From the NCBI GenBank assembly GCA_949752735.1, contig OX457051.1, positions 833,501 to 897,500 on the forward strand: 64,000 nucleotides of DNA, in the 5' to 3' direction. A program made the position numbers and the translations under genes. Within the stretch, counting starts at the first letter, position 1, and each line of letters begins with the position of its first letter. Source of the DNA: Lumbricus terrestris (Eukaryota > Annelida > Clitellata > Crassiclitellata > Lumbricidae). Positions 16,600 through 48,760 of the stretch are shown one piece after another. The notes below the pieces were generated by a model. That model saw nothing but the letters and a program-made list of their open reading frames with translations, made no database searches and had not been told where the DNA came from.

Positions 16600-16775
16600 G
16601 ATAAGTTCAGATGGGGAGACACCGAGTCGAGCCGAGCCTGGTCGCTTGCGGAAGTGCGCTTCCTGCATCAGGCGCAGGAGACATTTTACCGGGAGTTAGG
16701 CCCTCTGTGTGCAATGAGCAGAGCCGTGGGCCAGCATGCCACGGACATTGAGACTTCGACATTACGTTCACCTCC
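16600..16775 (+). pseudogene. Module A copy 1 (WSL-RFL alanine-rich family)
   Basis: The block SRAWSLAEVRFLHQAQETF is followed by YRELGPLCAMSRAVGQHA. Nine or more other copies in the window repeat this pattern: W-[ST]-[LI]-A-E-V-x-[FL]-L-H, then A, then F, then P-L, then V. In fuller copies (23489, 48061) the module continues with a Leu/Ala helix, K-S-S-[VF]-A-x-x-A-A-K, a Phe-rich helix, a C-V-A-A-A-D-E-A segment and an Ala-rich end of about 30 residues. I do not recognise the family. Here it is fused in frame to transposase sequence and loses homology after about 16775. Confidence 0.45.
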
Positions 16776-17159
16776 GCATGCGTCCCTACTTCACATCGGA
16801 GCGCGAGCACCATGCACCAGCAGGCCAGTAGCGCGTATACTTGTACAACGTGGGAGATTATATATTCGACCAGTATCTGCAGAGTCGATGTGGTGGAGCG
16901 TGTGCGGTTGGCGGTGGAGTTCTGCACAGGAGCAAAGATCTTTGGTTCCACTGTCGTCAGGAGCAGGCGGCTGGCTCCTCCAATACTACAGCCTCGACGG
17001 ACAGGTGCAGGACGACTGTAACAGCCGACTGTTCCTGGCGGCATTCGAGGAGACAAGAGAATAGATGTCGTAACTCGTCCGTCATGTGTACGTCGTAGGG
17101 TGTTATACATTTTAAACGCTTCTTCTTCTGTTTAGACAGTGCGCTGTCTTTTTTTCAAA

Positions 17160-17372
17160 TAATATTATGACCGATGGATTCGTTCGTGGATGCCTGTGTC
17201 TGTTGCTGGAAGCCATGCAGCGATGGAACACGGTTGGAGGGATGCGATACAGGTGCTCTCTGCCTGGTTGATGAATCGGGAGCAACTTTTCCATGGAATT
17301 TGACGCGTCTCAATGGTTGAGTTCAACACATCCAAGCGACAGATGGCCGCAAACTCCTTGGAAAAGGATCTG
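17160..17372 (+). pseudogene. Piece of the SVAGSYAAM exon plus a polymerase scrap
   Basis: The region around 17200-17250 matches 22620-22680 and 37275-37320 (S-V-A-G-S-x-A-A-M-E-H-x-W-x-D). After it, 17333-17372 carries FNTSKRQMAANS-x-EKDLF, a short piece of the family B polymerase relic at position 72. Two unrelated relics are therefore joined. Confidence 0.45.
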
Positions 17373-17539
17373 TTCAGCAGTGGAGTGCACCTGGTCGGTG
17401 CTGCAGGATGAAGTTATGAATATGGTGAAGAGGGACTTTGAACGTCAAAGATGCCATCGTGCACATATATAGGCCAAAATACAAACAAGTTTTAAAAAAT
17501 GTATTCGATGTGTTTGACAACTCTACTTCATGGAAGGTT

Positions 17540-17940
17540 AAGCCTGGAAATACCGAGACTCGGTTCGAGGCTCTGTTAGCTCTTCGTGACAGAGTTCTGG
17601 AAGGGGTGAGGGCCTTGCACGGTATAGCACAGACAGTGAATTTTGACAAATCTTCAGCCAAGCTTGGCCAGGGCCCGTTCCGAACTGGGACAACATTGCC
17701 GAATGCGTTGCGGCAGAGGATGAGGCAGACGAAAGGTTTTGAACCAAGACACACACCCTCTTCGTGAACTGTACGCAGCTGTGCGTGAACTTGCAGCGAA
17801 AGCTGCAAGCTATGATGGAAAGTTGGAAAGAGCTCTCACCGACTTCGCCAAAATGAGTTCGGTCGCAGCAACAGCTGCCAAAGACGCCTTCCTCCGTAGC
17901 TTGGGTTTTGAGAAGTGTCTACAGTTTGGGTTACTTTACC
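17540..17940 (+). pseudogene. Module A copy 2, frameshifted
   Basis: Pieces in different frames: S-Q-A-W-P-G-P-V-P-N-W-D-N-I-A-E-C-V-A-A-E-D-E-A-D (about 17650-17735), then from 17745 PLRELYAAVRELAAKAAS, E-R-A-L-T-D-F, S-S-V-A-A-T-A-A-K-D-A-F-L-R-S. It is collinear with copy 3 at 23489, which is the cleanest of this subtype. The last block (K-E-F-F-E-T-F in copy 3) seems to be continued by V-K-E-F-L-E-R-Y at about 18006, after an AG and before a GTAAGT. Confidence 0.45.
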
Positions 17941-18336
17941 GAGTACGTTAGAGTTGATGTGTTTTATGATTATACGCCTGTGTTTTAGTTCACTTAATTA
18001 CAGAGTGAAGGAGTTTTTGGAGAGATATGTAAGTGACTCTGATTTCAGGTCATGGAATGTATTTTTATACATGTGTGTGTGGCTTCCAGTCATACACGTG
18101 TTTATTATATATTTAGAGTAGACAAGTAAATATACTTAGTTGTATACTATAGTATAGCTGACATTTGTCATGTGCTTTATGCATGTTGTGTTGGCTTAAG
18201 TTAAGCTAGTAATGGACATCAGTGTCAAGTAGCATGGATCGAAATGAACAATATCATGACAGAGCTGATAGAGTTAATGTACGCTATTTTTCAAGTGAAA
18301 GCAAGAAGTTATAGGACATTATTGCAATATTTTTAG

Positions 18337-18672: not shown

Positions 18673-18680
18673 AATTTCTG

Positions 18681-18951: not shown

Positions 18952-19247
18952 TTGCTTCGATTATTATTAATAACAGAAAGACTCTTACGCACTGTTAGGT
19001 CACAAAATTTCATAAGGACAGCAACAGACGAGCACACCAGTCTGTTCGGGGAGACGTCATCGGCAGACACTTACATACGAAGTGTTTCCATCGTTGACAC
19101 TGCTGTGGATGCAGCCGATGCTGCTGAAAAGGCCGTCATGGTTGCAGAAAAAGCTGTTGCTGCCTTGTGCGCAGTTGCTGCAGCGGCACTGCCATGGGCA
19201 AACAGCGTGCCTACTTCCACCCTATGTGCCAACAATCCTGTGCTCTA
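18952..19247 (+). CDS. Module B copy 3, Ala-rich half
   Basis: The open frame covers EHTSLFGETSSAD, then a helix-forming run rich in Ala, Val, Asp and Glu (VDTAVDAADAAEKAVMVAEK) and ends with S-V-P-T-S-T-L-C-A. It equals the second half of the module seen in 9253 and 44680. The WSI-RFW half is missing here but appears, separately, just downstream at 19350. A GTTAG-like boundary near 18995 may be a splice site. Function unknown. Confidence 0.4.
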
Positions 19248-19319: not shown

Positions 19320-19765
19320 GTGCATGGACAAGTTGCGCGCAGAGCCAGAGACATAGAAATGAGACGTCGTTGCAATGCCGCACGGGGCGACAATTGGTCC
19401 ATAGAACAGTAGAGGTTCTGGGGGAAAATCCGGAAAGACTTTTAGGCTCTCTTCGGTCGTAAACTGTTCTTGCAATGAAGAAATGACTTGTTAACCGATC
19501 CGAAGGTGATTTTGTAAAAAAAACAGCAGCAGAAGTGCACACCTGTTTGTTCGGGGAGACGCTGTCTGCAAAGATTCACATCCTAGCGTCTCCGTTGTTG
19601 ATGCCATTGCTGCCCCATCTGCAGTCACAATGGCACAAGCAAACCGCATATCTCCTTCCACCCAAGGCACCAACCATCTTGTGCCACGCACCTGTTGAAT
19701 ACGACAATCTGACTCAACATGTGAATGAAGCTGGAAAACAATTCGTAACTGACAAGGAACTTTGA
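19320..19765 (+). pseudogene. Module B copy 4, full length but decayed
   Basis: The DNA aligns end to end with copies 1 and 3 (GGGGCGACAATTGGTCCATA ... GTTCGGGGAGACGCTGTC), but stops and frameshifts interrupt it, for example a TAG in the S-R-F-W block. The last part stays open as HTCLFGETLSA. Confidence 0.55.
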
Positions 19766-20721: not shown

Positions 20722-20787
20722 AGACAACAATCTTTTGCACTTTATAAGAAAAGCCAATTAAACTTCTTATATCTTAAATAGGTAAAC

Positions 20788-20955
20788 ATGCCCTTCGAAT
20801 ACCACATGACGTGCAAAGAGTCAGGATCAAAGAAAAAAATTGATGTCGATTCAAAGGTGGGTCTTATTGCTGTAATTCAACATCGTTTCGATGTGCAGTA
20901 TGACATACTTGTCCAGCAACCATATGAAGATGATTGGCTAGATGTTACGAATTGA
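20788..20955 (+). CDS. 55-aa repeat ORF, unit 1
   Basis: Encodes a 55-residue protein starting MPFEYHMTC, with S-K-K-K-I-D-V-D-S-K-V, then IQHRFDVQYDILVQQPYEDD and stop. It looks like a small alpha/beta fold but matches no family I know. The frame is kept intact in three adjacent units, with changes mostly conservative, which argues that it is or recently was coding. It could be an exon, since the unit has an AG-like boundary before the ATG. Confidence 0.4.
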   Translation: MPFEYHMTCKESGSKKKIDVDSKVGLIAVIQHRFDVQYDILVQQPYEDDWLDVTN

Positions 20956-21032
20956 AAGACCTGAACGAGAGTGGAGAAACTGCACTTTATAAGAAAACCT
21001 AACTCATTTTCTTATATCTTAAAAAGGTAAAC

Positions 21033-21200
21033 ATGCCCTTCAAATACCACATGACGTGCAAAGAGTCAGGATCAAAGAAAAAAATTGATGTCGATTCAAA
21101 GGTGGGTCTTATTGCTGCAATTCAACATCGTTTCGATGTGCAGTATGACATACTTGTCCAGCAACCATATGAAGATGATTGGCTAGATGTTACGAATTGA
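21033..21200 (+). CDS. 55-aa repeat ORF, unit 2
   Basis: Same length and stop as unit 1, with Glu4 changed to Lys and Val29 to Ala. No frame-breaking change is seen. Confidence 0.4.
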   Translation: MPFKYHMTCKESGSKKKIDVDSKVGLIAAIQHRFDVQYDILVQQPYEDDWLDVTN

Positions 21201-21277
21201 AAGACCTGAACGAGAGTGGAGAAACTGCACTTTATAAGAAAAGCTAACTCATTTTCTTATATCTTAAAAAGGTAAAC

Positions 21278-21406
21278 ATGCCCTTCGAATACCACGTGAC
21301 GTGCAAAGAGTCAGGATCAAAGATAAAAATTGATGTCGATTCAAAGGTGGGTCTTATTGCTGCTATTCAACATCGTTTCGATGTGCAGTATGACATGCAA
21401 GCATAG
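21278..21406 (+). CDS. Repeat ORF, unit 3, truncated to 42 aa
   Basis: Identical frame for the first 39 residues except His7 to Val and Lys16 to Ile, then the repeat ends and a short unrelated tail (M-Q-A) reaches a stop. Confidence 0.35.
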   Translation: MPFEYHVTCKESGSKIKIDVDSKVGLIAAIQHRFDVQYDMQA

Positions 21407-21410
21407 AAAG

Positions 21411-23488: not shown

Positions 23489-23917
23489 ATGACTCCATTT
23501 ACTGGAAGGTTCAGCCTGGAAGTACGAGACTTGGTTCGCTCTTCGTGGCAGAGTCCTGGAAGAGATGAGGGCCTTGCATGGCATAGAAAAGAGAGTGAAT
23601 TTTGCAAAACCTTCAGCCAAGCTTGGCCAGCGCCCATTCCAAACTGGGACGACGTTGCCGCATGCATTGCGGCAGGGAATGAGGCAGACAATAGGTTTTG
23701 GACGAAGATACATCCTCTTCGTGAACTGTACGCACCTGTGCGTGAACTTGCAGAGAAAGCTCCAAGCTATTCGATGGAGAGAGCTCTCACCGATTACACT
23801 AGCAAGAGCTCGGTCGCAGGAACAGCTGCCAAAGACGCCTTCCTCCGTAGCTCGGAGAAGGAATTCTTTGAAACGTTTCGGCATAATTGTCAGGTATGTA
23901 GAGTTGTACAAACATAG
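23489..23917 (+). CDS. Module A copy 3, longest open copy of the PLRELY subtype
   Basis: A single 142-codon frame runs F-C-K-T-F-S-Q-A-W-P-A-P-I-P-N-W-D-D-V-A-A-C-I-A-A, then HPLRELYAPVRELAEKA, S-M-E-R-A-L-T-D-Y, KSSVAGTAAKDAFLRSSEK, E-F-F-E-T-F. Thus the C-terminal part of one module is followed directly by the N-terminal part of the next, which indicates the parent protein held modules in tandem. The frame ends at a stop after an intron-like GGTATGTA. Function unknown; predicted mainly helical from its Ala/Leu/Glu content. Confidence 0.45.
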   Translation: MTPFTGRFSLEVRDLVRSSWQSPGRDEGLAWHRKESEFCKTFSQAWPAPIPNWDDVAACIAAGNEADNRFWTKIHPLRELYAPVRELAEKAPSYSMERALTDYTSKSSVAGTAAKDAFLRSSEKEFFETFRHNCQVCRVVQT

Positions 23918-26284: not shown

Positions 26285-27060
26285 GCTGGAGAGAAGAATA
26301 TAGCAAGGGAGAAGAAGATGGAGAGAAGAATATGATGAGAAGATGGTGAGGGAGAAGGAATTGGTGAGAAGATGGTGAGGGAGAAGGAGTTGGTGAGGGA
26401 GAAGGGGTTGGTGAGAAGATGGGGAGAAGGAGTTGGTGATGGAGAAGGAGCTGGTGAGAAGATGGTGAGAAGGTGTTGGTGAGAAGAATATGATGAGAAG
26501 ATGGCGAGGGAGAAGGAGTTGGTGAGGGAGAAGGAGCTGGTGAGAAGGTGTTGGTGAGAAGAATATGATGAGAAGATGGCGAGGGGGAAGGAGCTGGTGA
26601 GGGAGAAGGAGCTGGTGAGAAGGTGTTGGTGAGAAGAATATGATGAGAAGATGGCTAGGGAGAAGGAGTTGGTGAGGGAGAAGGACTTGGTGAGAAGATG
26701 GTGAGAAGATGGTGAGGGAGAAGGAGTTGGTGAGAAGATGGGGAGAAGGAGTTGGTGAAGGAGAAGGAGCTGGTGAGAAGATGGTGAGTAGGCGTTGGTG
26801 AGAAGAATATGATGAGAAGATGGCGAGGGAGAAGGAGTTGGTGAGGGAGAAGGAATTGGTGAGAAGATGGTGAGGGAGAAGAATATGATGAGAAGATGCT
26901 GAGGGAGTTGGTGAGAAGATGGTGAGGGAGAAGAATATGATGAGAAGATGGCGAGGGAGAAGGGGTTGGTGAGAAGATGGGGAGAAGGCGTTGGTGATGG
27001 AGAAGGAGCTGGTGAGAAGATGGTGAGAAGGCGTTGGTGAGAAGGAGTTGGTGAGAAGAA
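26285..27060. repeat. Long purine-only minisatellite
   Basis: About 775 bp of GAGAAGATGGTGAGGGAGAA and GGAGTTGGTGAG-type units combined into higher-order blocks of roughly 70-100 bp, often ending AGAATATGATGAGAAGATGG. One strand is almost free of C. It occupies the same place as the shorter 2035-2450 array. Confidence 0.95.
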
Positions 27061-35680: not shown

Positions 35681-36213
35681 GTGGCCAATGGAGAGAGGGG
35701 CACTGGGTTTTCGGCGGCATAGAGAGGGAAAGTGGGCGCTGCTTTCTCGTGGAAGTGCCGAATCGTCGAGCTGACACGCTTGCAGCATGCATCGAACAAC
35801 ATATTTTACCCGGGTCACATATAGTGTCAGACGGATGGGCTGCTTACGCCAACATCGAGCGGATACAGAACGGGATTTACCAGCATTCTGTGGTCGTGCA
35901 TCAGCACAACTTTGTCAACCCCGATGACGACAGTGTCCATACGCAGAACATAGAAAATTTATGGATGCGCGCGAAGCGCAAGCTTAAACGACAATTTGGC
36001 ACCAGTCGGGCACTTTTCCCCTCATATTTACATGAGTTCGTTTACCGTAATTGCTTTCGTGCAGACGATATGCATAAGAGCTTTTTGGTCACTTTGGGCG
36101 AAAACTACGCATAAAGACATTTCGCGTCATGAGAGTTGCGTAATGACACGTTTCTACTATCATCATGTTGAAAAAAAAATAACGACGCTAAACTACAGGA
36201 TTACCCCCAATTG

Positions 36214-36650
36214 AATGCTTTCATGTTCTCAAGTTCCTACAGCATGCTGTCCTTGTTGTTAAAGATGAAATTAAAATGACATATCGCTCTACTCCTGATT
36301 TGGCGCAATGTCAAATCTAATAGATAATATCTTGAGCACATTTTAAAAAGGTTATGCCATGCACTTTTTCAGTGTTGCAATACATCTGACAGAGGAAATT
36401 TTATTGTTTCTATTACTGTTTTAAGGTTGAAACACCTGTCATTCTGTCAGGATTCAATTATACTAGCATGTACAATATGGAACTATGGGCCTAACCTAAC
36501 CCATAATAGATAGTCACTTTGAGCACATTTCTAGATGCCATGCATCAATGATTAAATATGCATTAAAATTTAAATATTAAAAAAGTCAATATATCCGGTC
36601 TTCACTTTTGCTACGAGCTGTTAAGGATAACTTTTTGCAAAGCATCGCAG
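36214..36650. other. AT-rich sequence past the Merlin element
   Basis: The first 107 bases continue the interrupted acidic ORF. The rest shows no gene. Confidence 0.4.
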
Positions 36651-37130
36651 ACGACTTAAACGTAATTTTCAGTCGCTCCTGGTCAAAGCGCATCCCTGAC
36701 CGGGACGATGTTGCCGCATGCGTTGTGACAGCGGACGAGGCAGATGATGCTGCGCTGCATAAGTGCTAAGGCTAAAATTTGGCAGAAGGTGCTGCAGCTG
36801 TCCTTGCACATGTAAACTGCAGATCGGACTGAACAAGTCACTCACGAGTAGAGATCTACAAGCTTACGTCCTAATTGTTAAGTATGAAATTTTCAATATT
36901 ATGTCTTTATCGCATATGCAGATCGAGTGTAGGGCAGTACAGATTAGACAATTTACATTAGATTATGTTTATTGCTTTTGAATTCGACAAAGGCGCAAAG
37001 CATAGCCTGGTCTCTTGCCTAGGTGCGCTTCGTCCACTCAGCGCAGGAGAAGTTAGTGGACGGATGGTGTGTGCATCCTTGGAGGAGTGGCAAAGATTGT
37101 GTGGTAAGGAGTGTAGGCGGGCATTAGTCA
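36651..37130 (+). pseudogene. Module A copy 4, decayed
   Basis: First F-S-R-S-W-S-K-R-I-P-D-R-D-D-V-A-A-C-V-V-T-A-D-E-A-D (36670-36750), the C-terminal block of a module. Then from about 36978 GAATTCGACAAAGGCGCA and a region that reads, with a frame change, V-R-F-V-H-S-A-Q-E-K. This repeats the order C-terminal block then next N-terminal block as in copy 3. Duplicated at 58268-58747. Confidence 0.45.
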
Positions 37131-37136
37131 GATGAT

Positions 37137-37753
37137 TGTTTATGGCTAGCTTTAACCCTGGTAATTAGATGCTACAGCAATTTCACACTTTAAACCTCAT
37201 TCTCTGCATTGACAATTCTTAGTGGCAACACATGAACGCGTGTCTTCGCCGTTGCAGGTATATATATGGGCTCCGGCATCTGTTGCTGGAAGCTATGCAG
37301 CGATGGAACACCGTTGGTGGGATCCAAGATGCGTTGCGGCAGTGGCAAAAGCGGGTGCTGCTGCTGACGCTGCAAAAGCTTCTAGAGAAAAAGCAGCGTA
37401 CCTCGCACAATTTGCGCAGTCTGCGTATGCGTACGCTAACCGTCATTCCGACTGAGTATACAACAGCGTTTACCAAAGTGGGCGCAGGGGTTCCGCGAAA
37501 AGAATTAAGAAATATACACGATGAGGAGGAGGTAGCGCAAAGTAGAGCTTGGTCGCTTGCGGAAGTGCTCTTGCTGCACCAGTCGCAGGAGACATTTTAC
37601 CGGGAGTTATGCCCTCTGCGTACAATGAGCAGAGCGGTGGGTCAGCATGCCGCGGACATTCTTCGGCTGACAAATAAAACTACCTGTAGATACGTCTGCA
37701 TAATTCAATGTAATGGTCCGTCTGTGATTATGGGAAGCAACCTCGCGACGTAA
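37137..37753 (+). CDS. SVAGSYAAM exon with Ala-rich end, plus module A copy 5
   Basis: After an acceptor-like CGCCGTTGCAG at 37258 one frame reads A-P-A-S-V-A-G-S-Y-A-A-M-E-H-R-W-W-D, then VAAVAKAGAAADAAKASREK and AAYLAQFAQSAYAYANR to a stop at 37455, the Ala-rich terminal region of the module. In a second frame from about 37490, SRAWSLAEVLLLHQSQETF, Y-R-E-L-C-P-L-R-T-M-S-R-A-V-G-Q-H-A-A-D-I continues as in copy 1. Two phases mean either splicing or decay. Identical copy at 58754-59370. Confidence 0.45.
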
Positions 37754-37780
37754 CACTGTAGTTCATGAACACATTGTTTA

Positions 37781-38104
37781 TTAATGTTGATATGTCTTTT
37801 TGGTCATCAGCCTGACAAAGAAAACAGGTTCCTGAGTCATGGCCGAAGCTAATTTACCGACAAGCCTACATGCATACATGTTGGAAGTAAATACGTGCCT
37901 TTCAATATTAGAGAAAGATGCAGTCGAAAGTGTTAGGGGTAACTGGTTTCTGAAGGTGATATCCCTTATGCTATGGACGATGGACTTTCCATGTTCCTCG
38001 CAGAGAGATGCAATAATTAAGCATGAACATTGATCAACATAAAATTCTTGAAAACCAGCCAGAAAACCAGCGCAGTCTCTACCCCAGTTCATCCCCCTTT
38101 TCAA
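37781..38104 (-). CDS. Unrecognised minus-strand ORF, 107 codons
   Basis: Reads FQEFYVDQCSCLIIASLCEE, G-K-S-I-V-H-S-I-R, QLPLTLSTASFSNIERHVF and ends after a K-rich tail. The composition is protein-like, and the Leu-Pro-Leu-Thr...I-x-R-H pattern is like a block common after transposase-type regions in uncharacterised invertebrate proteins, but I cannot name it. A shorter plus frame overlaps. Identical copy at 59398-59721. Confidence 0.3.
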   Translation of the reverse strand: MKRGMNWGRDCAGFLAGFQEFYVDQCSCLIIASLCEEHGKSIVHSIRDITFRNQLPLTLSTASFSNIERHVFTSNMYACRLVGKLASAMTQEPVFFVRLMTKKTYQH

Positions 38105-38187
38105 ATGACGTCCGTCTCAATTTTACATGGCAATGGGGTTGAAAGTGACCAAAATTCACAATGTCATGAAATTTGGCCAGTCTTGAT

Positions 38188-38790
38188 GGATAAAGCCCTA
38201 CATAGATTTCAACACAGCCAAATGACAGATGGCCGCAAACTCATTCGAAAAGGATCTCTTCAAACTAATGAACAATTCTGTGTACGGTAAATGCCTTCAG
38301 AACAACAGGAAACATTTGAACGTCAGACTTGTTACGAATGAGAGGCAAGCGAAGTGATATATCGCTCAGCCAACATTTCAGGCGTTCAACATCATAAATG
38401 AAGACTTGATGGTGATCAAAATGTTAGTCGGATATCACATCCGACTAACAAGTCGGATGTGTTGGACAAGCCGATGTAGGTTGGCATGAGCATATTGGAT
38501 ATCACTAAGCTGCACATGTATCGCTTTCACTACGATCATGTGCAGAAGATGGACGAAGAAAGAGTCAAATTACTTTTCACGAACAGTTTGTGTTATCACA
38601 TTCGCACTGACGATGTGTATTTTTGGACATGCGTCAGAACATGACCGACTACCCCGCCAATCACTTTCTGCAAGCATTGTGGATACCGATACTGGGAACC
38701 TTAGCCTACTCTGGGCCAGATTCCACTGAAAACATATGTCGCTGACAGATATGTCAAAGCCGGAGTAGAGGTGGTCTGAGGAGGAATGTG
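38188..38790 (+). pseudogene. Family B DNA polymerase relic, longer copy
   Basis: The first 240 bp match 72-320 closely but contain stops (for example TGA after the AKR-equivalent codons and in QAKR). It then continues beyond that fragment with VGMSILDISKLHMYRFHYDH, a basic helix, and L-L-F-T-N-S-L, where the family B catalytic YTDTDS motif should be; both catalytic Asp residues are lost. A short direct/inverted repeat of TCGGATGT interrupts it near 38430-38460. Repeated at 59805-60407. Origin Polinton-like or viral; not decidable. Confidence 0.6.
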
Positions 38791-39299
38791 ACGACTAGTT
38801 TATCAGACTGGCACATTAAGTGTTAGGCGATAGGAAAATTGATTAAGACAGCTGGATATATAACGTGTTGGATATTATATAAACATATATTATTATATAT
38901 TTGTGCATCAGTAGGTTACATAATATTCTGTGTGATCTTTGAGAGTAGACTCCTAAGAATAGTTATATAGTAATCAGTTCATTTCGAGACCTGATATTGA
39001 GGTGTCTATAGAGGATTATTAGTGAATGTCAAATAAGTTAAATTGATAAATCATAGCCTACAGAGAGTGCTCTGCTTTGCCTTTAAAGTTCTTTTCTGCT
39101 TGTTTCCAAGTCACAGTAGGCCTAGCAGCTGTGTAAAGGTGTGATGGTATGTACAAGTTACTCTATTTTTTTCGCATGGCATGAATCGGGACCGTTTCCG
39201 AGTATGAATCTTGAATCTCTCACTCCCCCCTCCACCAATCAGGAAGCCTCCCCAATTTGAAAAGTTTTAATCTTCAAATTCTATCAAGCGTTTCAACAC
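38791..39299. other. AT-rich spacer
   Basis: No gene seen. Duplicated at 60408-60916. Confidence 0.5.
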
Positions 39300-39559
39300 A
39301 AAGAGAAGCAACCTATTACAGTGACAGCGTCCGTCCACTTCTCCAATACAATTCTGAAGAGAAATCCAAAGATCGACTGTGCATGAAACTCGCCAAGACC
39401 AGTGGAGAAAGCCATTCTGCACTTATTCACGGACACAATTGATTCAACCAACTGGCTGGGAGTTACATCAATTTGACTTGAAAGACATTACAGCAAATCA
39501 ATCATAATAGTAGTACTGTTCTAGCGGAGGAATGGACAACACAGGCAGAAATGGTGGTG
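39300..39559. repeat. 260-bp segment also present at 49430-49689
   Basis: From AAAGAGAAGCAACCTATTAC to ATGGTGGTG the two copies appear identical by eye, while both flanks differ. A short frame (R-E-A-T-Y-Y-S-D-S-V-R-P-L-L-Q-Y) is open in each. Another copy at 60917-61176 comes from the unit duplication. Confidence 0.85.
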
Positions 39560-40130
39560 CTCCGGCATGTGAACACCGACTCAACATGGCTGCAGCATTT
39601 CCATCGATGCCGCCAACCTCGCCGCAGCCGACTTAACATCCGAGCGAGGAGCCTCATCCGAACAACTGCACCGCAGCCTTCTTCGGCAAAAAGTGGTTAT
39701 TCACTTCCAATCACAGGCACCGACTCCAACCTCATGTCGACGTATAATTACTGTTGCAGAAGAACAGCAGAGCGACAGCGGCATGGCTTTGCTTTTTTCA
39801 CGGACCACGCCCATCTCTCCGTCATAAGAACGAATGGGCGTTCGAGGGAGGCAAGCTTCCGGCAGAAGAATACATAAATCCGCCTCAGACGACACGTTCC
39901 ACGAGTTCGGAAGTCTTCCTTCGACCAAGCACCGCCCGCCGTCTCAGCACGTCTCACGCCGCCGCAGACGCTTTGCTAGCCACGATGAACGCAGCAACCT
40001 CGGCGACGAAACTACAAAGGATGTAATAGTGGTCGGCTGCACGGTGGGACTTTGGATAGCCAGCCCGTCCGGAACAGGGAAACAGAGAGGACATACGAAC
40101 TTGGCCTACCACCCAAAGACGTGAATAGGA
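39560..40130 (+). pseudogene. Unrecognised Pro/Ser- and Ala-rich relic, copy 1 (module D)
   Basis: One frame gives M-A-A-A-F-P-S-M-P-P-T-S-P-Q-P and another, from 39754, has a 90-codon run with GGKLPAEEYINPP and DALLATMNAATSATKLQ. The first block recurs at 45121 (SMPPTSPQSPQHSSEAPRPK). It is broken by frame changes. Function unknown. Confidence 0.35.
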
Positions 40131-40545
40131 CAGCTGGTGGGACGGGTACCGTGAGGAGAACGTTGCGGTCGTCGACAAACTCGACATTGACGACTGCGCA
40201 GTCGTTCCCTATCTTAAGAAGTGGTTGATTGATTGATTGAGTTTAACGGCACTTCAGCACATAATTGGCTATTTCGTGCCTTAACATGATTATTGAAACT
40301 GCATTGTTTATTTTATACTAAAAACGTTTGCAATCGATAAATAGGATAAACTTTTTTTTTAAAAAGAGCAATCTGAACATCGCACAAGTAAAATTAATAA
40401 ATTAGGTTAAAACATGTTAAAGCTTAGGTCAACATTAGACATTTCATAAACTAGAAATCATATCTATTTAAAATCTTCCAACATTACACTTTGTTGTACA
40501 GTTGTATTTCTTTCAAATACAGCAAAATATTCTTTGGAGGAACAT

Positions 40546-43399
40546 TAGGGTGCTTTTAAGGTACATGTGAAATCTTAAACTCGAATATTTTTTAACGACC
40601 AAGTCAGATTATCGTGACAGATCATGAATAACCTCCATATCCAAAATTATATCTTAATAGCTCAACATTTAGGACTTGCGCAAAGCGACCAAAGTTAGGA
40701 ACCAGGTTGGATTATAGGCAATATTTTCATGATTCCCATTCTTGCCAGCCTTTGACCCCTTCTGAATGGCCGCTTCCCAACTAATCAATATTCGTGACAA
40801 TGACAGCTTATCTTTTGCTTATGTCATGGGTGTCGTGCTGCAAATGGCGGACAGTGTTTGTTTTAATTAATATATCATATCGCACTTGGGATGGCTAAAT
40901 CTACTAGAAAAAAGGCTGAAATCTGGTTGATAGGCAGTACGGAAGATCATTTCAGTTATGCGAAATTACCTACACGAGGACAGGTTCTGAAGGTGCTTTT
41001 TAATTTCCATACACTAAGAAATCAGAGTCTGGATGATAGCGTAAAAGAAACGGCAGCTATGGTACTCCCAATTTGGGAAAGAGCCCGCATTCCAACGAAG
41101 GCTAGGAATCACGTTTGGGATCGGCTACGACATCTCCATAAGGAATGGCAAAACCTTAAGAAAAGTATTTCTAGGACGTCAGAAACCGAAGATGGCAAGC
41201 GTGAGGCTTTCAAGGATTCCCTGGAGGATCTGTTTGATATTGCCCACAGTGATGCCATGACAATAATCAAGATAGAAGAGGATCGACAGTTTTTGAAAGC
41301 ACAGCGTGAGAGAGGACGACGTGGTTCAATGGCAGGTATTGATGTCAAACTTTCAAAGCAAGAAACGAGAGTGGCAGCAAGATCAGCAGCACTTGCAGAG
41401 CGTATGGAACGCTATCGTGCTAGCACAGCTGCTGCAGCGACAGAAGTTTCTGTGTTGGAAAAGTCATCCGAAGAAGAGGCGTCATCCAGTAGCTCAGAAA
41501 AAGAACCAGAACCTTCGACGTCTGCTTGGCCACCAAAACGGCGAAGGGGGACAATCTCTGTCGTTACTCGTGATGTTGCTGCTGCTCTAGATCGTACCAA
41601 AACCAGCAGCAGGAAGGCCTCTCACATTTTGACTGCTCTCGCTGTATCCAATCTTTGTGCAGCACCAGCTGGCGAGCTGATTATCAGTCCTTCTGCGATT
41701 CATCGAGCAAGGAAGGATAGCCGTGCAGCCCTAGCAGCAGAGATTCATGAATCTTTCGATCCGAAAGTTCCTCTTACTATTCACTGGGATGGCAAGATCA
41801 TGCCAGATGCTACAGGAACAGGACGAGGGTGTGTTGATCGCCTTCCGATAATGGTATCTGGTAAGGAGGTGACCAAGCTATTGGCCATCCCCAAACTCCA
41901 ATCTGGTACAGCTGCCGTCATGTCAGATGCGTGTTTGGTCGAGATCAGACGTTGGGGATTGGAAGACAGAATCGTGGCCATGTGTTTCGATACAACAGCG
42001 AGCAACACGGGTTGCAAGGGCGGCGTATGCATCAGGCTGGAAACAGAATTAGGAAAGGACCTATTGAACCTTGCTTGCCGACATCATATTTCTGAAATTG
42101 TTCTGGAAAAGGTGTTTTCACTGCATGATTCTGCAAGGTCTCCAAAATTGGAACTCTTTGTTCATTTCCGAGACTTCTGGCCACAAATCGATCAGACCAA
42201 GTATCGCACAGCAATGGAGGATAAAGATGCAGTACAGCATATCACAGAAATTCGAGATAATGTCATCAGCTTCGCATTGCAGCAACTGAGTACTGATCAT
42301 TACAGAGATGACTACAAAGAGCTACTTGAGCTGACAGTAATTTTCTTAGGAGGAATTCCGCCAAAAGGAATAAAGTTCAGGTACCCAGGGGCAGTTCATA
42401 GAGCACGCTGGATGGCACGTGCGATCTATGCTATCAAAATGTGGCTTTTCAGAGATCAATATCCCATTCAACAACGTCAGAGCTCAGAGAGGGCATCACG
42501 AACATCCTACTCTCAAAAGGTGTGGAATCATTTAGTTCGAGTGTCCCTTTTTGTGACAACAATTTATGTGAAGTACTGGTTCACATGTGTCTCACCTAAA
42601 GAGGCCCCAAGGAACGATCTTGAATTCTTGAAGGCAATCCACACTTATCAAGACAAGGAAGTCTCACAGGTCGCCTCAACAGCATTTTCGCGACACCTTT
42701 GGTATTTATCAGAGACCCTGGTTGGCCTCAGCCTTTTTGATGATTCAGTCACCGTCAATGAGAAGCAGCGCATGGTCTACAACATGCAGAACAATCAGGG
42801 ATCTGATGATCCTCCAAAGAGGATTCCTCCGATACATGATCCACTTACAAAAGCACTGCCCGATTTCGTCTCCACTTCAACCTCAAAAATATTCAGGATC
42901 CTCGGATTGGATGACTCTTTTCTTGAACGAGATCCGCAACAGTGGGAGTCAGAGCAATCATACAATGAGGCAAAAGACATCATATCTGCCCTAAGAGTGA
43001 CGAATGATTTGGCAGAGAAAGGAGTGGCTCTTATGCAGACCTTCAATGAAGCGCTGGTAAGAAATGAGGAAGAGAAACAATTTGTTCTGCAAATGGTTGA
43101 GTACCATCGAGATAAATTCCCGAAAGCACTAAAGGGAATAAATTATGACGAATAACTGACAGTATTTCCTTTGATTATGACATATATCTAATGTTCAAGG
43201 TTCTAAAATTGTTTGGATCTCTGAAAATAACAATGAATCACATTGATGACAAAGTCACAAATCTTAAAGGGCTTTGCGCAAGTCCTAAATTTATTTCGAT
43301 TTTCACATAATTTGGCAGATAATAATTACTATCATGATGGAACAGAAAACCAACTTGGTCGATGTTTAATTCGAGACTTTAATATTTAGACACACCCTA
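40546..43399 (+). mobile_element. hAT-like DNA transposon, complete, 2854 bp
   Basis: Comparison with the empty site at 62153-62166 gives exact ends. An 8-bp duplication AGGAACAT lies at 40538-40545 and 43400-43407. The ends read TAGGGTGCTTTTAAGG and, reversed, TAGGGTGTGTCTAAAT. Inverted similarity extends inward for about 140 bp, including ACGACCAAGT and ATTTAGGACTTGCGCAAAGC blocks near both ends. TAGGG ends and 8-bp target copies are typical of hAT; the P superfamily also gives 8 bp, but the ORF lacks a THAP finger. Confidence 0.9.
40891..43155 (+). CDS. Transposase of the hAT-like element, 754 aa, intact
   Basis: Encodes the only gene of the element. No BED zinc finger is visible; the first 150 residues are helical and basic, followed by a Ser/Glu-rich linker (about 190-215) and KRRRG. 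A probable RNase H-like core follows: Asp near 300 in IHWDGK, Asp near 367 in MCFDTTASNTG (recalling the hAT D-x-A-x-N block), CRHHISE at about 394, Glu candidates in LLELTVIFLGG (about 478), HRARWMARAIY (about 503), HLWYLSE (about 602), and a C-terminal L-x-x-K-G-V-A-L-M-Q-T-F-N motif. Similar proteins of unassigned name occur in many invertebrates. Intact frame plus intact ends suggest recent mobility. Confidence 0.7.
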   Translation: MAKSTRKKAEIWLIGSTEDHFSYAKLPTRGQVLKVLFNFHTLRNQSLDDSVKETAAMVLPIWERARIPTKARNHVWDRLRHLHKEWQNLKKSISRTSETEDGKREAFKDSLEDLFDIAHSDAMTIIKIEEDRQFLKAQRERGRRGSMAGIDVKLSKQETRVAARSAALAERMERYRASTAAAATEVSVLEKSSEEEASSSSSEKEPEPSTSAWPPKRRRGTISVVTRDVAAALDRTKTSSRKASHILTALAVSNLCAAPAGELIISPSAIHRARKDSRAALAAEIHESFDPKVPLTIHWDGKIMPDATGTGRGCVDRLPIMVSGKEVTKLLAIPKLQSGTAAVMSDACLVEIRRWGLEDRIVAMCFDTTASNTGCKGGVCIRLETELGKDLLNLACRHHISEIVLEKVFSLHDSARSPKLELFVHFRDFWPQIDQTKYRTAMEDKDAVQHITEIRDNVISFALQQLSTDHYRDDYKELLELTVIFLGGIPPKGIKFRYPGAVHRARWMARAIYAIKMWLFRDQYPIQQRQSSERASRTSYSQKVWNHLVRVSLFVTTIYVKYWFTCVSPKEAPRNDLEFLKAIHTYQDKEVSQVASTAFSRHLWYLSETLVGLSLFDDSVTVNEKQRMVYNMQNNQGSDDPPKRIPPIHDPLTKALPDFVSTSTSKIFRILGLDDSFLERDPQQWESEQSYNEAKDIISALRVTNDLAEKGVALMQTFNEALVRNEEEKQFVLQMVEYHRDKFPKALKGINYDE

Positions 43400-43858
43400 A
43401 GGAACATGTTCAAAAATATCAGAAAGGGATTGTTCCATATAATATTTTTGCCTTGTCGTTGTAAAATCAACACATGACACCAGTATGTGTTCCACTGTGA
43501 GAGGGCAATTGCATCCCACACATTGTGGTGCATCTTCTTTCTTAAGCAAATGAACATGCGTAAGATAAGTATGACCTATTCTTAGCCGTGCTAAGACTAC
43601 TTCATCTCTACGGCTGTCTTGCGAGGCATGGTGCCACCTTTCTATATTGGGATTAATAGTATGCAGTTTATTATGATCCATGCTACTCCACTTTAACTTC
43701 CATTGATCATATACATAAGCATCTATGTATTGCTTGGCATCAGAATATGGCACCTTGCAGTATGACACTGCATCTGAAAGGGCTGCTTTGGCAGCTGCGT
43801 CTGCAGCCTCATTGCCTCGAATGCCAACATGACCTGGTACCCAGCAAAATTTAACCAT
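43397..43858 (-). pseudogene. LINE ORF2 C-terminal fragment (RNase H end)
   Basis: Starts M-V-K-F-C-W-V-P-G-H-V-G and covers GNEAADAAAK through the C-terminal zinc motif, but an extra T just upstream breaks the frame, and the hAT-like element cuts its end. Residue choices (Ser, His, Ser, Asn at four places) match the copy at 51881, not the one at 30189. Confidence 0.85.
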
Positions 43859-43980
43859 TTTTGTCAGACATTGTAATCCGGTGGTACTTGGATACTACAT
43901 CTACCACAAGTGAGTGGTTTAGATTACAACCTGCGACAGCTTGCAAGGATGACAATGAATCACTAATTATTAAGAAGTGG

Positions 43981-44600
43981 GGCGACCGGTTCTCCTTCAG
44001 AGCGGAGGCGATGAGCGCCAGCGGCTCCGTCGTGATACGGCCACAGAATGTCGTGGTGACATCGAATTACGAACCGCACGAGATCTAAACTTTGCGCATG
44101 CGGTAGTGGACGAGGTAGCTGCTGCTGCCGACACTGCAGAAAGTGGTAGGTGCTAATGCAGCATATCTGGCAGGGTTTTCCGCATCTGCATATGAATTCG
44201 ACTTAGGCGCAAATTAAATCATGGACCATTGCTGAGGTGCGCTTCATGCACTCAGCAAATGAAAAGTTTAGGAGAGAGGTACAGCATCTCAGTCACCTGC
44301 ACATAAACTTGGAACGAATAGTAGATTTACAGCTGGCTCAATGAATACGGGGATAAGAGCGCTTTCTTGGACAAGACGAAGAACAAATTATTCCAAACGT
44401 TTGGGGGGACGAGGAGGCGGTGGTGGAGGAGAGGGATGAGGAAGCCAATGACGCCGAAGATTCGGAAAGGGACGAGCACTGCAGCGGCAGTATTACCTTG
44501 TTTTGCAACAAAGCAGACTTAAGCAAATCGTTTTGCTTAGTACCTTATTCGTATGGATGCGACTCCACAGACGTGAAAGAAGACACCTATATATATACAT
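43981..44600 (+). pseudogene. Module A copy 6 with an acidic, Cys-containing end
   Basis: After the LINE a 43981-44088 frame is unrecognised. A decayed Ala segment (44110-44190) and GAATTCGAC follow, then T-I-A-E-V-R-F-M-H-S-A-N-E-K-F-R-R-E-V (44222-44280). Further on, a frame at 44420 with E-E-R-D-E-E-A-N-D-A-E-D-S-E-R leads to SGSITLFCNKADLSKSFCLV and P-Y-S-Y-G. The same end is found at 48640-48760. Identical copy at 62736-63355. Confidence 0.45.
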
Positions 44601-44679
44601 ATATATAATTATATATTTATATATGTCACACAAACACACACGCAAGCTACATGTACAATTGGACATAAAGGGTTGAAAA

Positions 44680-44956
44680 TATAGTCAAGAAATCTCTGTC
44701 CTTGAACACTGGACAGCAACAGATGAGCACACTAGTCTGTTCGGAGAGACGCCATCGGCAGACACTTACATATGAAGTTGTTTCCATCATCGACACTGCT
44801 GTGGATGCAGCCGATGCTGCTGAAAAGACCGTCGTGGTGGTTGCAGAAAAAGATGCTGCTGCTTTGTGCGCAGAACGCGCCGTTGTTGCAGAGGCACTGC
44901 CACGGGCAAACAGCGTGTTTACTTCCACGCTATGCGCCAAAGAACCTGTACTCTAA
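44680..44956 (+). CDS. Module B copy 5, Ala-rich half
   Basis: Frame from 44702 with S-L-V-C-S-E or, in the aligned frame, T-S-L-F-G-E, then SIIDTAVDAADAAEKTVVVV, A-E-K-D-A-A-A-L-C-A and S-V-F-T-S-T-L-C-A. Nearly identical in layout to 18952-19247. Second copy at 63435-63711. Confidence 0.45.
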
Positions 44957-45009
44957 GAATCGCGTACACTTACGTGTATGAACTGAAATGCCAAAAATAT
45001 ATATTTATA

Positions 45010-45340
45010 TATTAAAACAGGCAGTGATGATGCGCACGGACAAGTTGCGCGCAGAGCCAGAAACATAGAAATAAGACGTCGCAGTAATGTCGCAAGGGGC
45101 GACAATTGCTCCATAGAGAAGGTCTTCTAATACAGCATTTCTATCAATGCCGCCAACCTCGCCGCAGTCCCCTCAACATTCGAGCGAGGCGCCTCGTCCG
45201 AAGAATCACGCCGCCACGCAGCCTTCTTCAGCAAAAAAACTGGGTATTCACTCCCAATCAGAGGCACATGCATGCGATAGACTCCAAAATCAGGAACTCA
45301 AATATAAAAGTTGATTGCCAAGATGTAGCGACTATATAGA
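45010..45340 (+). pseudogene. Module B scrap joined to module D copy 2
   Basis: The part 45030-45118 repeats the start of module B (GACAAGTTGCGCGCAGAGCC ... GGGGCGACAATTGCTCCATA as at 19330-19400). It then switches to FLSMPPTSPQSPQHSSEAPR, then NHAATQPSSAKKLG, matching 39590-39720. Two module types are thus fused. Confidence 0.4.
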
Positions 45341-45405: not shown

Positions 45406-45630
45406 CGTTTCAGGAAATCAGGCTTGTTTGAAAAAGTTGCGCTTAAATCTTGGTTTGCAGGATTTAGCATATAGGTGTGGTATTCATGAGGGAACTGTGT
45501 CTAGGATTTTGCACAAGTGGATTTCCATAACGTGAACCAAACTTGAACCATGCTGCATAATATGACCTGACAGAGATGATTTACGTAAGATTATGCCACT
45601 TTGTTTCAATGCTTTTCATTGAGCAAAGGC
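45406..45630 (+). pseudogene. DDE_Tnp_4-type transposase, N-terminal helix-turn-helix fragment
   Basis: One frame reads L-R-L-N-L-G-L-Q-D-L-A-Y-R-C-G-I, then EGTVSRILHKWIS, P-D-R-D-D-L-R-K-I-M-P. This is the HTH region that precedes the DDE_Tnp_4 catalytic domain (motif L-x-x-D-L-A-x-R-F-x-[IV]-S-x-x-T-V-S-R-I-x-x-x-W, then W-P). Three TGA stops, one in place of Trp before P-D-R, show decay. It complements the C-terminal piece at 16390. Confidence 0.7.
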
Positions 45631-45635
45631 TCTTG

Positions 45636-46138
45636 CCCAGGTGTGCTTTGTCCATTCGGCGCATGAAAGATTTCGGAGGAAGATACACCCTCTCCGTGAA
45701 CTGTACGCACCTGTGCGTGAACTGGCAGTGACAGCTGAAAGCTATTCGATGGAGAGAGCACTCACCAATTACGCTACGCTAACAAGAGCTTGGTTGCAGC
45801 AACTGCTGCGAAAGACGCCTTCCTTCGAAGCACGGAGAAGGAATAATTCTTTGAAACGTTTGGCTGCGTGTGTCAAGCGCAATTTCCAAACCCGGCTGAC
45901 GTTGCAGCATGCTCACGCTGCAGAAGCAGCAAGAGTATGTGCGGCGCATCTTGCGGGATTTGCCGCATCTGCGCATGCATATGTGAATCGGCCATATTAT
46001 TTTGTAACTGTAAAAGTCTCTTTTTTTTGTGTGTGTGTGCAAATTGAATTTCAGCGACGGAAATATTTGGGAGAGCGATTGTATAGATGCTATAACAAGT
46101 ATACATTAGAAATCCTTTATCGTGTCTGTATCTTTTAA
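45636..46138 (+). CDS. Module A copy 7, near-full length with one shift
   Basis: Starts C-F-V-H-S-A-H-E-R-F-R-R-K, then HPLRELYAPVRELAVTAES, S-M-E-R-A-L-T-N-Y-A. The K-S-S-V-A-A-T-A-A-K block is in another frame, after which the first frame again gives AEAARVCAAHLAGFAASAHA, Y-V-N-R. A pair of compensating indels is likely. An acidic exon follows at 46372. Confidence 0.45.
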
Positions 46139-46371
46139 CATTGTATATTATCTTCGTCACTTCACAGATCTAAGTCTTTCTTATCTCGACTACATATATA
46201 TAAGCCATAGCATAAACAAACATTATAGAGATTGAACTTTCGTTGTAGCACTTCTCGATTAATGTAAAACTTTATGTATTCATATACTATACTATGACAG
46301 TTAAATGTTGCATTTATTTATATAGAAAGTAAATTCAATTGTTTATTAATACAATGTATATTTGTATGCAG

Positions 46372-46949
46372 ATGAAACATACCGCTGTACGTTTGTGTTT
46401 CCACCTGCAACGGTTTTGTCAATAATCGTGCAATATGACACGTTAACTGGATTGGTGCATGACTATGTATGCATTACATCATGCCATATAACATACCTAG
46501 CTGTGGATGACACACCATTGAGCATTCTCCCAGTCTTGCACTATCCGGATCTGTGGAGCAAAGCAAAGCTACTAGACCTGAATTTGGAATGGCTAGATTT
46601 TGACACTTGGAGCGACTTCACAGATGAAGATACGATGTGGAGCATTGAACCAAACTCGGATGCAGATTCGATTCAAATTATAACAGATGAAGACACTCGG
46701 GAAGCAACAAAATGGATGGATGATTGTGCATGGCTATGTATGCATTACATCATGCAACATAACATACATAGCCGTAGACGGTACGCCATTGAGAACTCTC
46801 ACAGCCTTGATCTATCCAGATCTATCCGGAGCTGCTGGACTTCGATATGTGGAGCGACTTCACGGATGTGGATGAAGACACGCGATGGAGCAACGTGCCA
46901 AATTCAGATGTGGATTCCATTCAAATTGGTCAATAATAAGTTTTCTTAA
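46372..46949 (+). CDS. Acidic terminal exon with internal duplication
   Basis: Begins after TTTGTATGCAG and reads, in phase 1, D-E-T-Y-R-C, then a hydrophobic part and L-E-W-L-D-F-D-T-W-S-D-F-T-D-E-D, a dense acidic/aromatic block. The segment 46458-46690 is repeated with changes at 46725-46935; in the second copy the acidic block is in another frame. Start residues and phase equal those of the exon at 25459, suggesting related gene structure. Function unknown; the acidic/aromatic pattern resembles activation regions. Confidence 0.4.
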
Positions 46950-47700
46950 ATTGAGTTATTGAGACAGGAATGAAATCCTTCTTGTTTGTTTATGATATAT
47001 AAGGATCTACATAGTCATTAAAGGCTATTGCTCTTTTCAAATGCTTAATTATAATGATATTGTTGCCGGCTGTCGAGGTAAGGGAAAGATGGTATGGATC
47101 TATGTGTGGAGGATGGTCAGAGTTGGTGTGGTAAGGTTGGGTGGTGAAGGGCAGTCTGGATCCATTCTTCATTACAGTGGGTCGTGTTCCTCTGACATTG
47201 AACTTTTCGTTAAAGTCGACAATTTGATGCAGCATTTAGTCAACTCGTGTTCTACATTTGAGAAAGGATAAGGAAAGGGGCAGAGGCTACAGGGGTACAA
47301 GGTGGCAGTTTGTGGTCAAACAATTAAGCGCAAATATGTTCGACCTCTGTAGCTGCTTCTAACTATGCTGGTACAATAATAGAGCGGCAAATCGCATATT
47401 GGAAAAGGTTTTGGAACATGATCCGCCAGAAGGAATCTCAGCGGACGAGCAGCTCTAAAGCCTGGTCCTACGTTCAAAGATTTAAGTCACACAATTCAAG
47501 CTATTTATGATCTCTTGCCAAACTCACCAATTTCACCAGAGTCTGGTAAGCAAAAAAGGTCGTTGCTTCCATTCATTGGTACTTTGTCTAAATCTCTCTT
47601 TAGAACTGCATCTGAGGAAGATGTGCAAATCGTAGCTGCACATGTACAGTCTTTTTAATACACTATCAAACTTATTCATTCTTTCTTTGGAAAGAGACAT
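46950..47700. other. Spacer
   Basis: One 76-codon plus frame (47041-47271) is of ordinary composition and not recognised. No repeat link seen. Confidence 0.3.
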
Positions 47701-48330
47701 AAATGATGGCATATGTTCCAACTGCAACTGAAATCCTTTTAAAAGTTGTGGTTGCAATTTATTCAATGAATTTGACAAAGGCGCATGGCAGAGCCTGGAC
47801 TATAGCCGAAGTGCGCTTTCTGCACGGAGCACAAAAGAAATTTAAGAGAGAGGTGCAGCCTCTGTGTCCCCTGCACGCGCAGGTGCGTACACTGATAACA
47901 AATTCACGGAATTTGGAGCTGGCGCTGAAAGAATACGTGGATAAGAGCTAACGTGTCACCTGCACGCGCAGGTGCGTACACTGATAACAAATTCACGGGA
48001 TTTGGAGCTGGCGCTGAAAGAATACGTGGATAAGAGCTAACGTGTCACCTGCACGCGCAGGTGCGTACACTGATAACAAATTCACGGGATTTGGAGCTGA
48101 CGCTGAAAGAATACGTGGATAAGAGCTCTTTCGCGGCTGTTGCTGCGAAAGAGTTCTTCTTGGAAGAGACCAAGACCGAATTTCGCCAAACGTTTGTCCG
48201 ACCATGTCCGGCGCTGCTGCCAAAACTGGAGGACCTGGCCGTGTGCGTTGCGGCAGCGGACGAGGCAGCTGCTGCTGCTGACACTGCAGAAGCGGCACGT
48301 GATAATGCAGCGTATCTGGCATGAATTCGA
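47701..48330 (+). pseudogene. Module A copy 8, with 89-bp triplication
   Basis: The start RAWTIAEVRFLHGAQKKFKR, E-V-Q-P-L is followed by H-A-Q-V-R-T-L ... L-E-L-A-L-K-E-Y-V-D-K-S and a stop. The 89-bp stretch ending there is repeated twice more; the third copy avoids the stop and continues KSSFAAVAAKEFFLEETKTE, F-R-Q-T-F, P-A-L-L-P, then VCVAAADEAAAAADTAEAAR, N-A-A-Y-L-A. Because 89 is not a multiple of 3, the triplication breaks the frame. The third copy shows best what the complete module is like. Confidence 0.55.
47871..48137. repeat. 89-bp tandem repeat, three copies
   Basis: Copies start at 47871, 47960 and 48049 with CTGCACGCGCAGGTGCGTAC. They differ at one or two bases (GGAATTT/GGGATTT, GGCGCTG/GACGCTG), so expansion was recent. 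Confidence 0.95.
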
Positions 48331-48760
48331 CAAAGGCGCACAGCAGAGCTTCCTGCACTCAGCAAATGAAAAGTTTAGGAAAGAGGTACACCCTCTCAGT
48401 CACATGCACGCGCAGGTGCGTGAACTTGAACAATTGTAGAGATCCACAGCTGGCTCTAAACGATTTCGTTAGGAAGAGCTCTTTCACAGCAGAGCCTGGA
48501 CTATAGCCGAGGTGCACATCCTGCACTCAGCAAATGAAAAGTTTTGGAGGGACGTGCACCCTCTTCGTCAACTGCGCATGCAGGTGCGTGAACTTTCTTT
48601 CGAAGATGCCTTCTTGTACGAGACAAAGATTTGAAAAGGGACGAGCACTTCAGTGGCAGCATTACCCTGTTTTGCAACGAAGCAGACTTAAGCAAATCGT
48701 TTTGCTTAGTACTGTATTCGTATGGACGCGACTTCACAGACGCTGAAGAAGACGACTAAC
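48316..48760 (+). pseudogene. Module A copies 9 and 10 with Cys-containing end
   Basis: Copy 9: Q-S-F-L-H-S-A-N-E-K-F-R-K-E-V-H-P-L ... V-R-E-L, then decay. Copy 10 from 48495: S-R-A-W-T-I-A-E-V-H-I-L-H-S-A-N-E-K-F, P-L-R-Q-L. It ends in the frame S-G-S-I-T-L-F-C-N-E-A-D-L-S-K-S-F-C, equal to 44470-44580. Frames change several times. Confidence 0.45.

What the first reader, a model, noticed from the sequence alone, without database searches (positions are those of the whole stretch)
16600..48620. Recurrent alanine-rich module family A/B/C with a shared W-x-E-x-R-F core
At least ten module A, five module B and three module C copies lie scattered among unrelated elements. All start W-[ST]-[LIM]-x-x-x-R-F, have a Phe and Pro-Leu soon after, and end in 20-40 residues of Ala-rich helix. 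In copies 3 and 4 the end of one module is followed by the start of the next, so the parent protein was a tandem array. Several copies have acceptor-like AG before them and stay open despite heavy duplication. I know no family like it. The copies are often fused with transposase or polymerase relics, which hints at a mobile or viral carrier.
Basis: partly seen in the sequence, partly recalled or inferred. Interest (0 to 1): 0.75.

Follow-up and report, generated by a model that had tools for sequence, protein, structure and literature searches.

The report
Decayed cluster of unknown helical genes
The repeated "modules" are mostly broken copies of an apparently undescribed family of small, alanine-rich helical genes that multiplied side by side on one animal chromosome, with three unbroken-looking relatives on a second chromosome.

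Summary
The repeat is real and larger than reported. Module-like stretches form 22 clusters in the window, 41 from C17:827027 to 928224, all 123 HSPs on one strand. Modules A, B, C and an X type are one family: W-[ST]-x4-[RL]-F in helix 1, a second helix, an Ala-rich third helix. The parent was mostly not a tandem-array protein: the A type is one coding exon with CTAAC, CTTTTACAG, a start codon within 0-11 bases, about 140 codons and a stop. In the 1.06-Gb genome, A and C queries hit only C17 and C13; C13 holds three open start-to-stop relatives (137, 223, 289 aa). Many window copies are frameshifted, stopped or truncated, and A exons are no better conserved than the bases just upstream. Library, PDB, IMG/VR and prokaryote searches found no relative above cut-off; the 5.8-billion-protein search was run with window-derived queries only. 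A viral or mobile carrier is not supported: low copy number, one orientation, two loci. I read the window as a decaying, transposon-riddled duplicate gene cluster. The role is unknown; a soluble self-associating helical protein is inference. Boldest reading: alternative coding exons chosen by splicing.

The parts
9266..9571 (+). X-type copy (W at 9287), frameshifted; Ala-rich helix-3 part in another frame
10225..10256 (+). 3'-splice-site-like signature upstream of A1; the ATG found in other copies is lost here
   Evidence: 9 mismatches to the 32-mer
10300..10593 (+). A1: helix 1 and helix 2 open; frameshift before helix 3
10805..11326 (+). X-type head (10805-10942) followed by A2 (11042-11326, one TAG)
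11382..11413 (+). 3'-splice-site-like signature, ATG 5 bases further (A3)
   Evidence: 5 mismatches
11440..11658 (+). A3, open but shortened by deletions
16624..16749 (+). B1 head, reading on from a DDE_Tnp_4 fragment in one stop-to-stop frame
17629..17930 (+). E-type copy with tail-to-head junction, stops and a frameshift
19006..19233 (+). X-type helix 2 and helix 3
19374..19684 (+). X-type copy, broken
23591..23878 (+). E-type copy, open (in a 146-codon stop-to-stop frame), same tail-to-head junction
36596..36754 (+). helix 2 / helix 3 piece
36981..37085 (+). B0 head with one stop
37279..37660 (+). Ala-rich helix 3 (to about 37443) then B2 head (37529-37660)
44082..44338 (+). helix-3 tail abutting C1 head, frames broken
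44716..44938 (+). X-type helix-3 region
45623..45991 (+). D copy (E-like), frameshift and stop
47769..48598 (+). C2 (with an 89-bp tandem repeat, 3 copies), C3 and C4 in succession
58213..63693 (+). five clusters that repeat 36596-44938 through the segmental duplication

Best explanation
The modules are copies and fragments of a lineage-restricted multigene family that multiplied by tandem and segmental duplication on chromosome contig C17. Each gene of the A type is a short coding exon behind a conserved 3' splice site (so with an upstream non-coding exon, or trans-splicing): start codon, a helix with the W-[ST]-x4-[RL]-F signature, a second helix ending near A-W-P, an Ala-rich third helix, stop. 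Other types keep the same core with other ends. Steps shown: homology, single orientation, the signature, conserved start and stop of the A type, three open members on C13, decay of many C17 copies. Steps inferred: that the C13 members are expressed and functional, that they are soluble three-helix proteins whose Ala-rich helix mediates self-association, and that the C17 cluster is a decaying duplicate shaped by unequal crossing-over and transposon insertion.
For: One strand: 0 of 123 HSPs minus; 53 direct against 1 inverted match in masked self-comparison. Two loci only: A query 12 hits C17 + and 1 C13 -; C/E query 34 C17 + and 2 C13 -; upstream block 9 C17 + and 1 C13 -; these are lower bounds by the tool's own statement. 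Signature TGTCTAACGCCTGTGTTCTGCAACTTTTACAG at <=9 mismatches: 11 on C17 +, 0 on C17 -, 2 on C13 -, reversed motif 0; 12 of 13 end in AG; ATG within 0-11 bases in 12 of 13. It precedes both A-type exons and a C/T-like 111-codon frame at C17:826982. Open relatives: C13:46534276-46534686 (137 aa), 46463849-46464715 (289 aa), 46558670-46559338 (223 aa), all minus. C13 and C17 share flanking DNA too (893 columns at 75 percent; 531 at 80 percent), so the spread was by DNA duplication, not retrocopying. Codon positions of C13 A gene against A1, C17:911, 922, 910: 72/94/140 changes, p 7e-6 treating them as independent, which they are not. Structure: helices 14-47 and 52-84 in A1 (pLDDT 76.4, pTM 0.60); three helices in 48043-48315 (pLDDT 74.6, pTM 0.37).
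Against: No transcript data. The C13 A gene lacks the signature Trp (KCLS for KWWS). Exons are no better conserved than the adjacent upstream bases: in 13 of 17 usable pairs the upstream is more alike, significantly in one (84/88 against 295/383, p 2e-5), which coding constraint alone does not explain. pN/pS for the C13 A gene ranges from 0.41 to 1.24 over seven copies. G30 and F21 share only 25-27 percent with the C13 A gene, and in nucleotide terms their acceptors differ from the A signature. In-frame tail-to-head reading in two copies leaves room for multi-module proteins. Single-strand orientation is also what one very large gene would show.
Confidence: 0.72

Rival explanations
1. A single very large gene whose tandem domain repeats are encoded by many exons, now broken up by transposons.
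For: All copies on one strand; tail-to-head adjacency, one junction shared by three copies and open through 23591-23878; T tail followed by B head about 90 bases later at C17:827 and 870.9 kb.
Against: A-type copies have ATG 0-11 bases after an acceptor-like site and a stop at the homology's end; the C13 relatives are separate single frames tens of kb apart; tail and head frames do not match at C1 and C3.
Confidence: 0.12
2. The modules belong to a mobile element or an endogenous virus.
For: GC-rich frames (0.60-0.66) in 0.40-0.43 flanks; transposon and polymerase-like fragments nearby; no cellular relative found.
Against: Ten copies of the upstream block and about 50 module hits in 1.06 Gb, at two loci only, one orientation each; upstream splice-site-like signature; none of 4 IMG/VR scans found a relative; Foldseek against viral models 0 of 304 at E<=0.001.
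Confidence: 0.06
3. A non-coding local repeat in which open frames are accidental.
For: Nearby C17 copies diverge about as much in the exon as upstream; several pairs have pN/pS near or above 1 (C3/C4 0.99, C1/C3 1.46).
Against: Three open start-to-stop members with 25-27 percent identity keep the core; distant pairs have pN/pS 0.25-0.41 (B1/C2, A1/C2, C1/C2, protein-guided and so biased low); third-position excess without protein guidance.
Confidence: 0.08

Closest known systems
Birth-and-death tandem multigene clusters (general kind; recalled)
   Same: Local direct duplication, diverged subtypes, many pseudogenes, a duplicate cluster on a second chromosome.
   Different: The protein family itself matches no curated family; the conserved unit includes the 3' splice site and ends at the stop codon.
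Alanine_zipper / Lpp-OprI lipoproteins (PF11839, NF040598)
   Same: Ala-rich helix: 20.4 bits against cut-off 23.1, and 19.6 against 43, over residues 97-133 of the C13 A gene.
   Different: Below both cut-offs; composition-driven; no lipoprotein context; eukaryotic.
WXG100 / ESAT-6 family (TIGR03930)
   Same: Two-helix hairpin with Trp; 15 bits for A1.
   Different: Cut-off 44.85; animal genome; a weak chance-level match.
SesA domain of NACHT proteins (PF17107)
   Same: 15.1 bits over residues 29-87 of the A1 frame.
   Different: Cut-off 26.3; no NACHT domain seen.

Membership tests
Tandem multigene cluster with pseudogene decay | Several related copies in direct orientation at one locus | tested here: met
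   41 clusters over 101 kb, 0 of 123 HSPs minus
Tandem multigene cluster with pseudogene decay | At least one unbroken member | tested here: met
   three start-to-stop frames on C13; one 111-codon frame lacking helix 1 on C17
Tandem multigene cluster with pseudogene decay | Members are transcribed genes | not testable with these tools
   no RNA data held
Mobile element or virus | Dispersed copies with element ends in both orientations | tested here: not met
   C17 and C13 only, one strand each; no terminal repeats were looked for at the copies outside the window
Mobile element or virus | Relatives in viral collections | tested here: not met
   four IMG/VR scans without a relative; PHROGs none for 11 window pieces
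Tandem-repeat protein | Modules joined in one reading frame | tested here: inconclusive
   one junction shared by three copies, in frame in two, open in one; C1 and C3 joins out of frame
Alanine_zipper PF11839 | Score above gathering cut-off | tested here: not met
   20.4 against 23.1 bits
WXG100 TIGR03930 | Score above curated cut-off | tested here: not met
   15 against 44.85 bits

The most novel reading that the evidence does not exclude
The cluster is one transcription unit with many alternative coding terminal exons: a shared 5' exon is spliced to one of an array of cassettes, each consisting of a branch point, acceptor, start codon, three-helix open frame and stop. Cassette number and sequence turn over quickly, while the splice signal is kept even in front of different protein subtypes and broken frames, and small tandem repeats at C17:911.9-912.5 kb amplify just the acceptor and the first 31 codons.
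Probability: 0.1. Interest if true: 0.75.

Novelty: new member of a known kind. Interest (0 to 1): 0.4.

Why it matters
It adds an apparently undescribed protein family, with open members to test, and a dated-looking series from intact to broken copies. It also shows how raw-sequence reading can mistake a decayed gene cluster for a modular giant protein or a viral carrier. If the splice-selected array were true it would be an unusual way of choosing between small proteins.

Tried and rejected
Rejected: one tandem-array parent as the main model; viral or mobile carrier; DDE fusion as biology (neighbouring relic read through). A stronger claim that exons evolve faster than their upstream bases was dropped: it came; in 83 and 85 the A2 row aligned onto A3 and the 912a/912b rows overlap, so those rows are unusable; the pairwise repeat left one significant pair, and there the acceptor chosen for A1, A3, 911, 922, 926 and 927 was a CAGA a little further down, so their upstream piece includes leader or early coding bases. 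A CpG effect did not explain the difference. A PDB match of the 223-aa gene to the V-type ATPase A subunit (E 0.03) and of the A1 profile to an exonuclease (E 0.57) were judged chance. Foldseek against PDB: 0 of 165 matches at E<=0.001. First fuzzy scan of the splice signature returned only best matches and was replaced. Literature: four searches, listings only, no paper opened; the peptide-letter search found 0 papers.
Full report
What was given. The finding describes recurrent alanine-rich modules A, B and C at 16600-48620 that share a W-[ST]-x-x-x-x-R-F start, sees a tandem-array parent and guesses a mobile or viral carrier.

Setting. The window is G000:C17:833501-897500, + strand, of an assembly of 1,056,305,194 bases in 331 contigs. 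It is animal-like: a histone 3' stem-loop (36.6 bits, gathering 34), LINE proteins with endonuclease, RT and RNase H, a Tc1-type transposase (PF01498, PF13358), an IS1595-type transposase (PF12762) and a 762-codon frame with 335 relatives, among them Eriocheir, Artemia and Schizaphis records. The species is not known to me. A 10.3-kb stretch (30276-40545) recurs at 51899-62162 at 99.7 percent and 43400-45245 at 62155-64000 at 99.9 percent.

The observation. The strict motif occurs 10 times, all on +, against 0.18 expected from 60 Markov sequences. Six queries give 123 HSPs in C17:813501-947500, 0 on minus, in 41 clusters between 827027 and 928224, 22 in the window; reversed queries give 3 HSPs. 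Five of the 22 are copies made by the segmental duplication. Forty kb further out on each side (L022-L029) showed none at E<=0.01 for the queries. In a masked self-comparison 53 matches are direct and 1 is inverted.

One family, several types. A1 and C2 match at E 8.5e-6 and the types align over helix 1 and helix 2. An X type (W-S-I-E-Q-x-R-F-W) belongs too: the X query finds the C13 289-aa gene at 2.6e-12. The Ala-rich tail is helix 3: the C13 A gene continues in frame from the W-P region through CLAASRIAAEAEDKAQEAEGAACDAAKRAEEALERF to a stop. AlphaFold2 gives two long antiparallel-looking helices for A1 (14-47, 52-84; pLDDT 76.4, pTM 0.60) and three helices for 48043-48315 (pLDDT 74.6, pTM 0.37); the second has low pTM, so packing is not established.

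Gene form. Reading out the A copies showed that homology begins about 100 bases before an ATG and stops at the stop codon. The 32 bases before the start hold CTAAC and CTTTTACAG, which I read (from general knowledge) as branch point, pyrimidine tract and acceptor. At <=9 mismatches this signature occurs 11 times on C17 + (2 of them in the window), 0 on C17 -, and twice on C13 -, with 0 for the reversed motif; 12 of 13 end in AG and 12 of 13 have ATG within 0-11 bases; in A1 the ATG is lost. A 120-base block holding it finds 9 places on C17 and 1 on C13 in the whole genome (lower bound). The same signature stands before a 111-codon frame at C17:826982 that has helices 2 and 3 of the C type but no helix 1. 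So the duplicated unit is acceptor plus coding exon, for at least two types. For C, B and D heads in the window the signature is not recognisable at that threshold, though C2 and C3 keep an ATG.

Open relatives. On C13, minus strand: 46534276-46534686 (137 aa, A type), 46463849-46464715 (289 aa, nearest X) and 46558670-46559338 (223 aa, nearest E) run from ATG to stop. Each has an acceptor-like AG upstream. A further C13 start of the same kind runs into unread bases. Frames are 60-66 percent GC against 40-43 in flanks. Against my reading: the 137-aa gene lacks the Trp of the signature.

Decay and constraint. Many C17 copies are broken (see parts). The C13 A gene against seven C17 A copies gives pN/pS 0.41, 0.47, 0.48, 0.52, 0.65, 1.01 and 1.24. 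Codon-position counts against four of the seven (those without in-frame stops) are 72, 94, 140, p 7e-6 if independent, which they are not; singly the four have p 0.02-0.13. Among 20 in-window pairs the ratio runs from 0.18 to 2.23 (protein-guided, short). Exon identity is not above that of the bases upstream: upstream is higher in 13 of 17 usable pairs, significantly in one. I take this as old constraint and recent near-neutrality on C17; the upstream similarity may reflect recent amplification or selection on splicing and is not explained.

Spread. C13 and C17 share flanking DNA (893 columns at 75 percent, 531 at 80 percent), so copying was at DNA level. A query: 12 hits on C17, 1 on C13. C/E query: 34 and 2. 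The 289-aa gene finds only itself; the 223-aa gene finds itself and a weak C17 piece (E 0.016). The X-type genome search did not complete. These numbers, orientation and two loci speak against a mobile carrier. The transposase fusion is a DDE_Tnp_4 relic beside B1.

Relatives elsewhere. Pfam: no family above cut-off for any family frame tried, apart from the DDE part beside B1. NCBIfam: none above cut-off for five proteins. PHROGs: none for 11 window pieces. PDB: nothing significant. IMG/VR: none in four scans. GTDB: none for the 223-aa gene. The large protein collection: none for the window alignment (7994 candidates scored) or my consensus (757 candidates, none at E<=1); both are limited by length and shared words, and the C13 genes were not searched there. 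So 'no known relative' is a statement about these searches.

How it may work. Inference: the proteins are small, helical, without an obvious hydrophobic signal by eye, with Ala-rich helices that could zip together and charged or low-complexity tails; a self-associating scaffold or binding protein is the simplest guess, with low confidence. The cluster evolves by unequal crossing-over: the 179-base tandem units at C17:911.9-912.5 kb repeat the acceptor plus the first 31 codons.

Verdict. A real, apparently undescribed family, seen in the window as a mostly decayed cluster. The surprising parts (orphan family, conserved acceptor-ATG cassette) deserve RNA evidence; the giant modular protein and the viral carrier are not supported.

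Noticed in passing
30276-45245 and 51899-64000: A segmental duplication of about 20 kb at 99.7-99.9 percent; the second copy lacks the stretch 40546-43399 that holds the 762-codon frame.
   Followed up: partly
40867-43155: An open 762-codon frame without Pfam match but 335 relatives in the protein collection, transposon-like by its spread.
   Followed up: partly
15631-15676 (-): A histone 3' stem-loop above Rfam's cut-off with no histone reading frame recognised by eye beside it.
   Followed up: partly
78-310, 38193-38425, 59810-60042, 17316-17375: Repeated fragments that resemble a protein-primed type-B DNA polymerase of Polinton elements; the name is recalled, not from a family search.
   Followed up: partly
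L011:105-530 (C17:917605-918030): A RING-finger frame (PF13920, 1e-8) between A-type copies.
   Followed up: no
44477-44584 and 48646-48753: A shared ending (HxSGSITLFCNxADLSKSFCLV) after C1 and C4, 80.6 percent alike, possibly a common C-terminal or 3' exon.
   Followed up: partly
46450-46927: An acidic reading frame with an internal duplication about 270 bases apart, unrelated to the module by the searches made.
   Followed up: no
20736-21396 and 26313-27044: A 245-base tandem repeat (2.7 copies) and a GA-rich minisatellite.
   Followed up: no
C17:911.9-912.5 kb: Tandem 179-base units, each with the acceptor signature, ATG and 31 codons; in one of them the AG is changed.
   Followed up: partly
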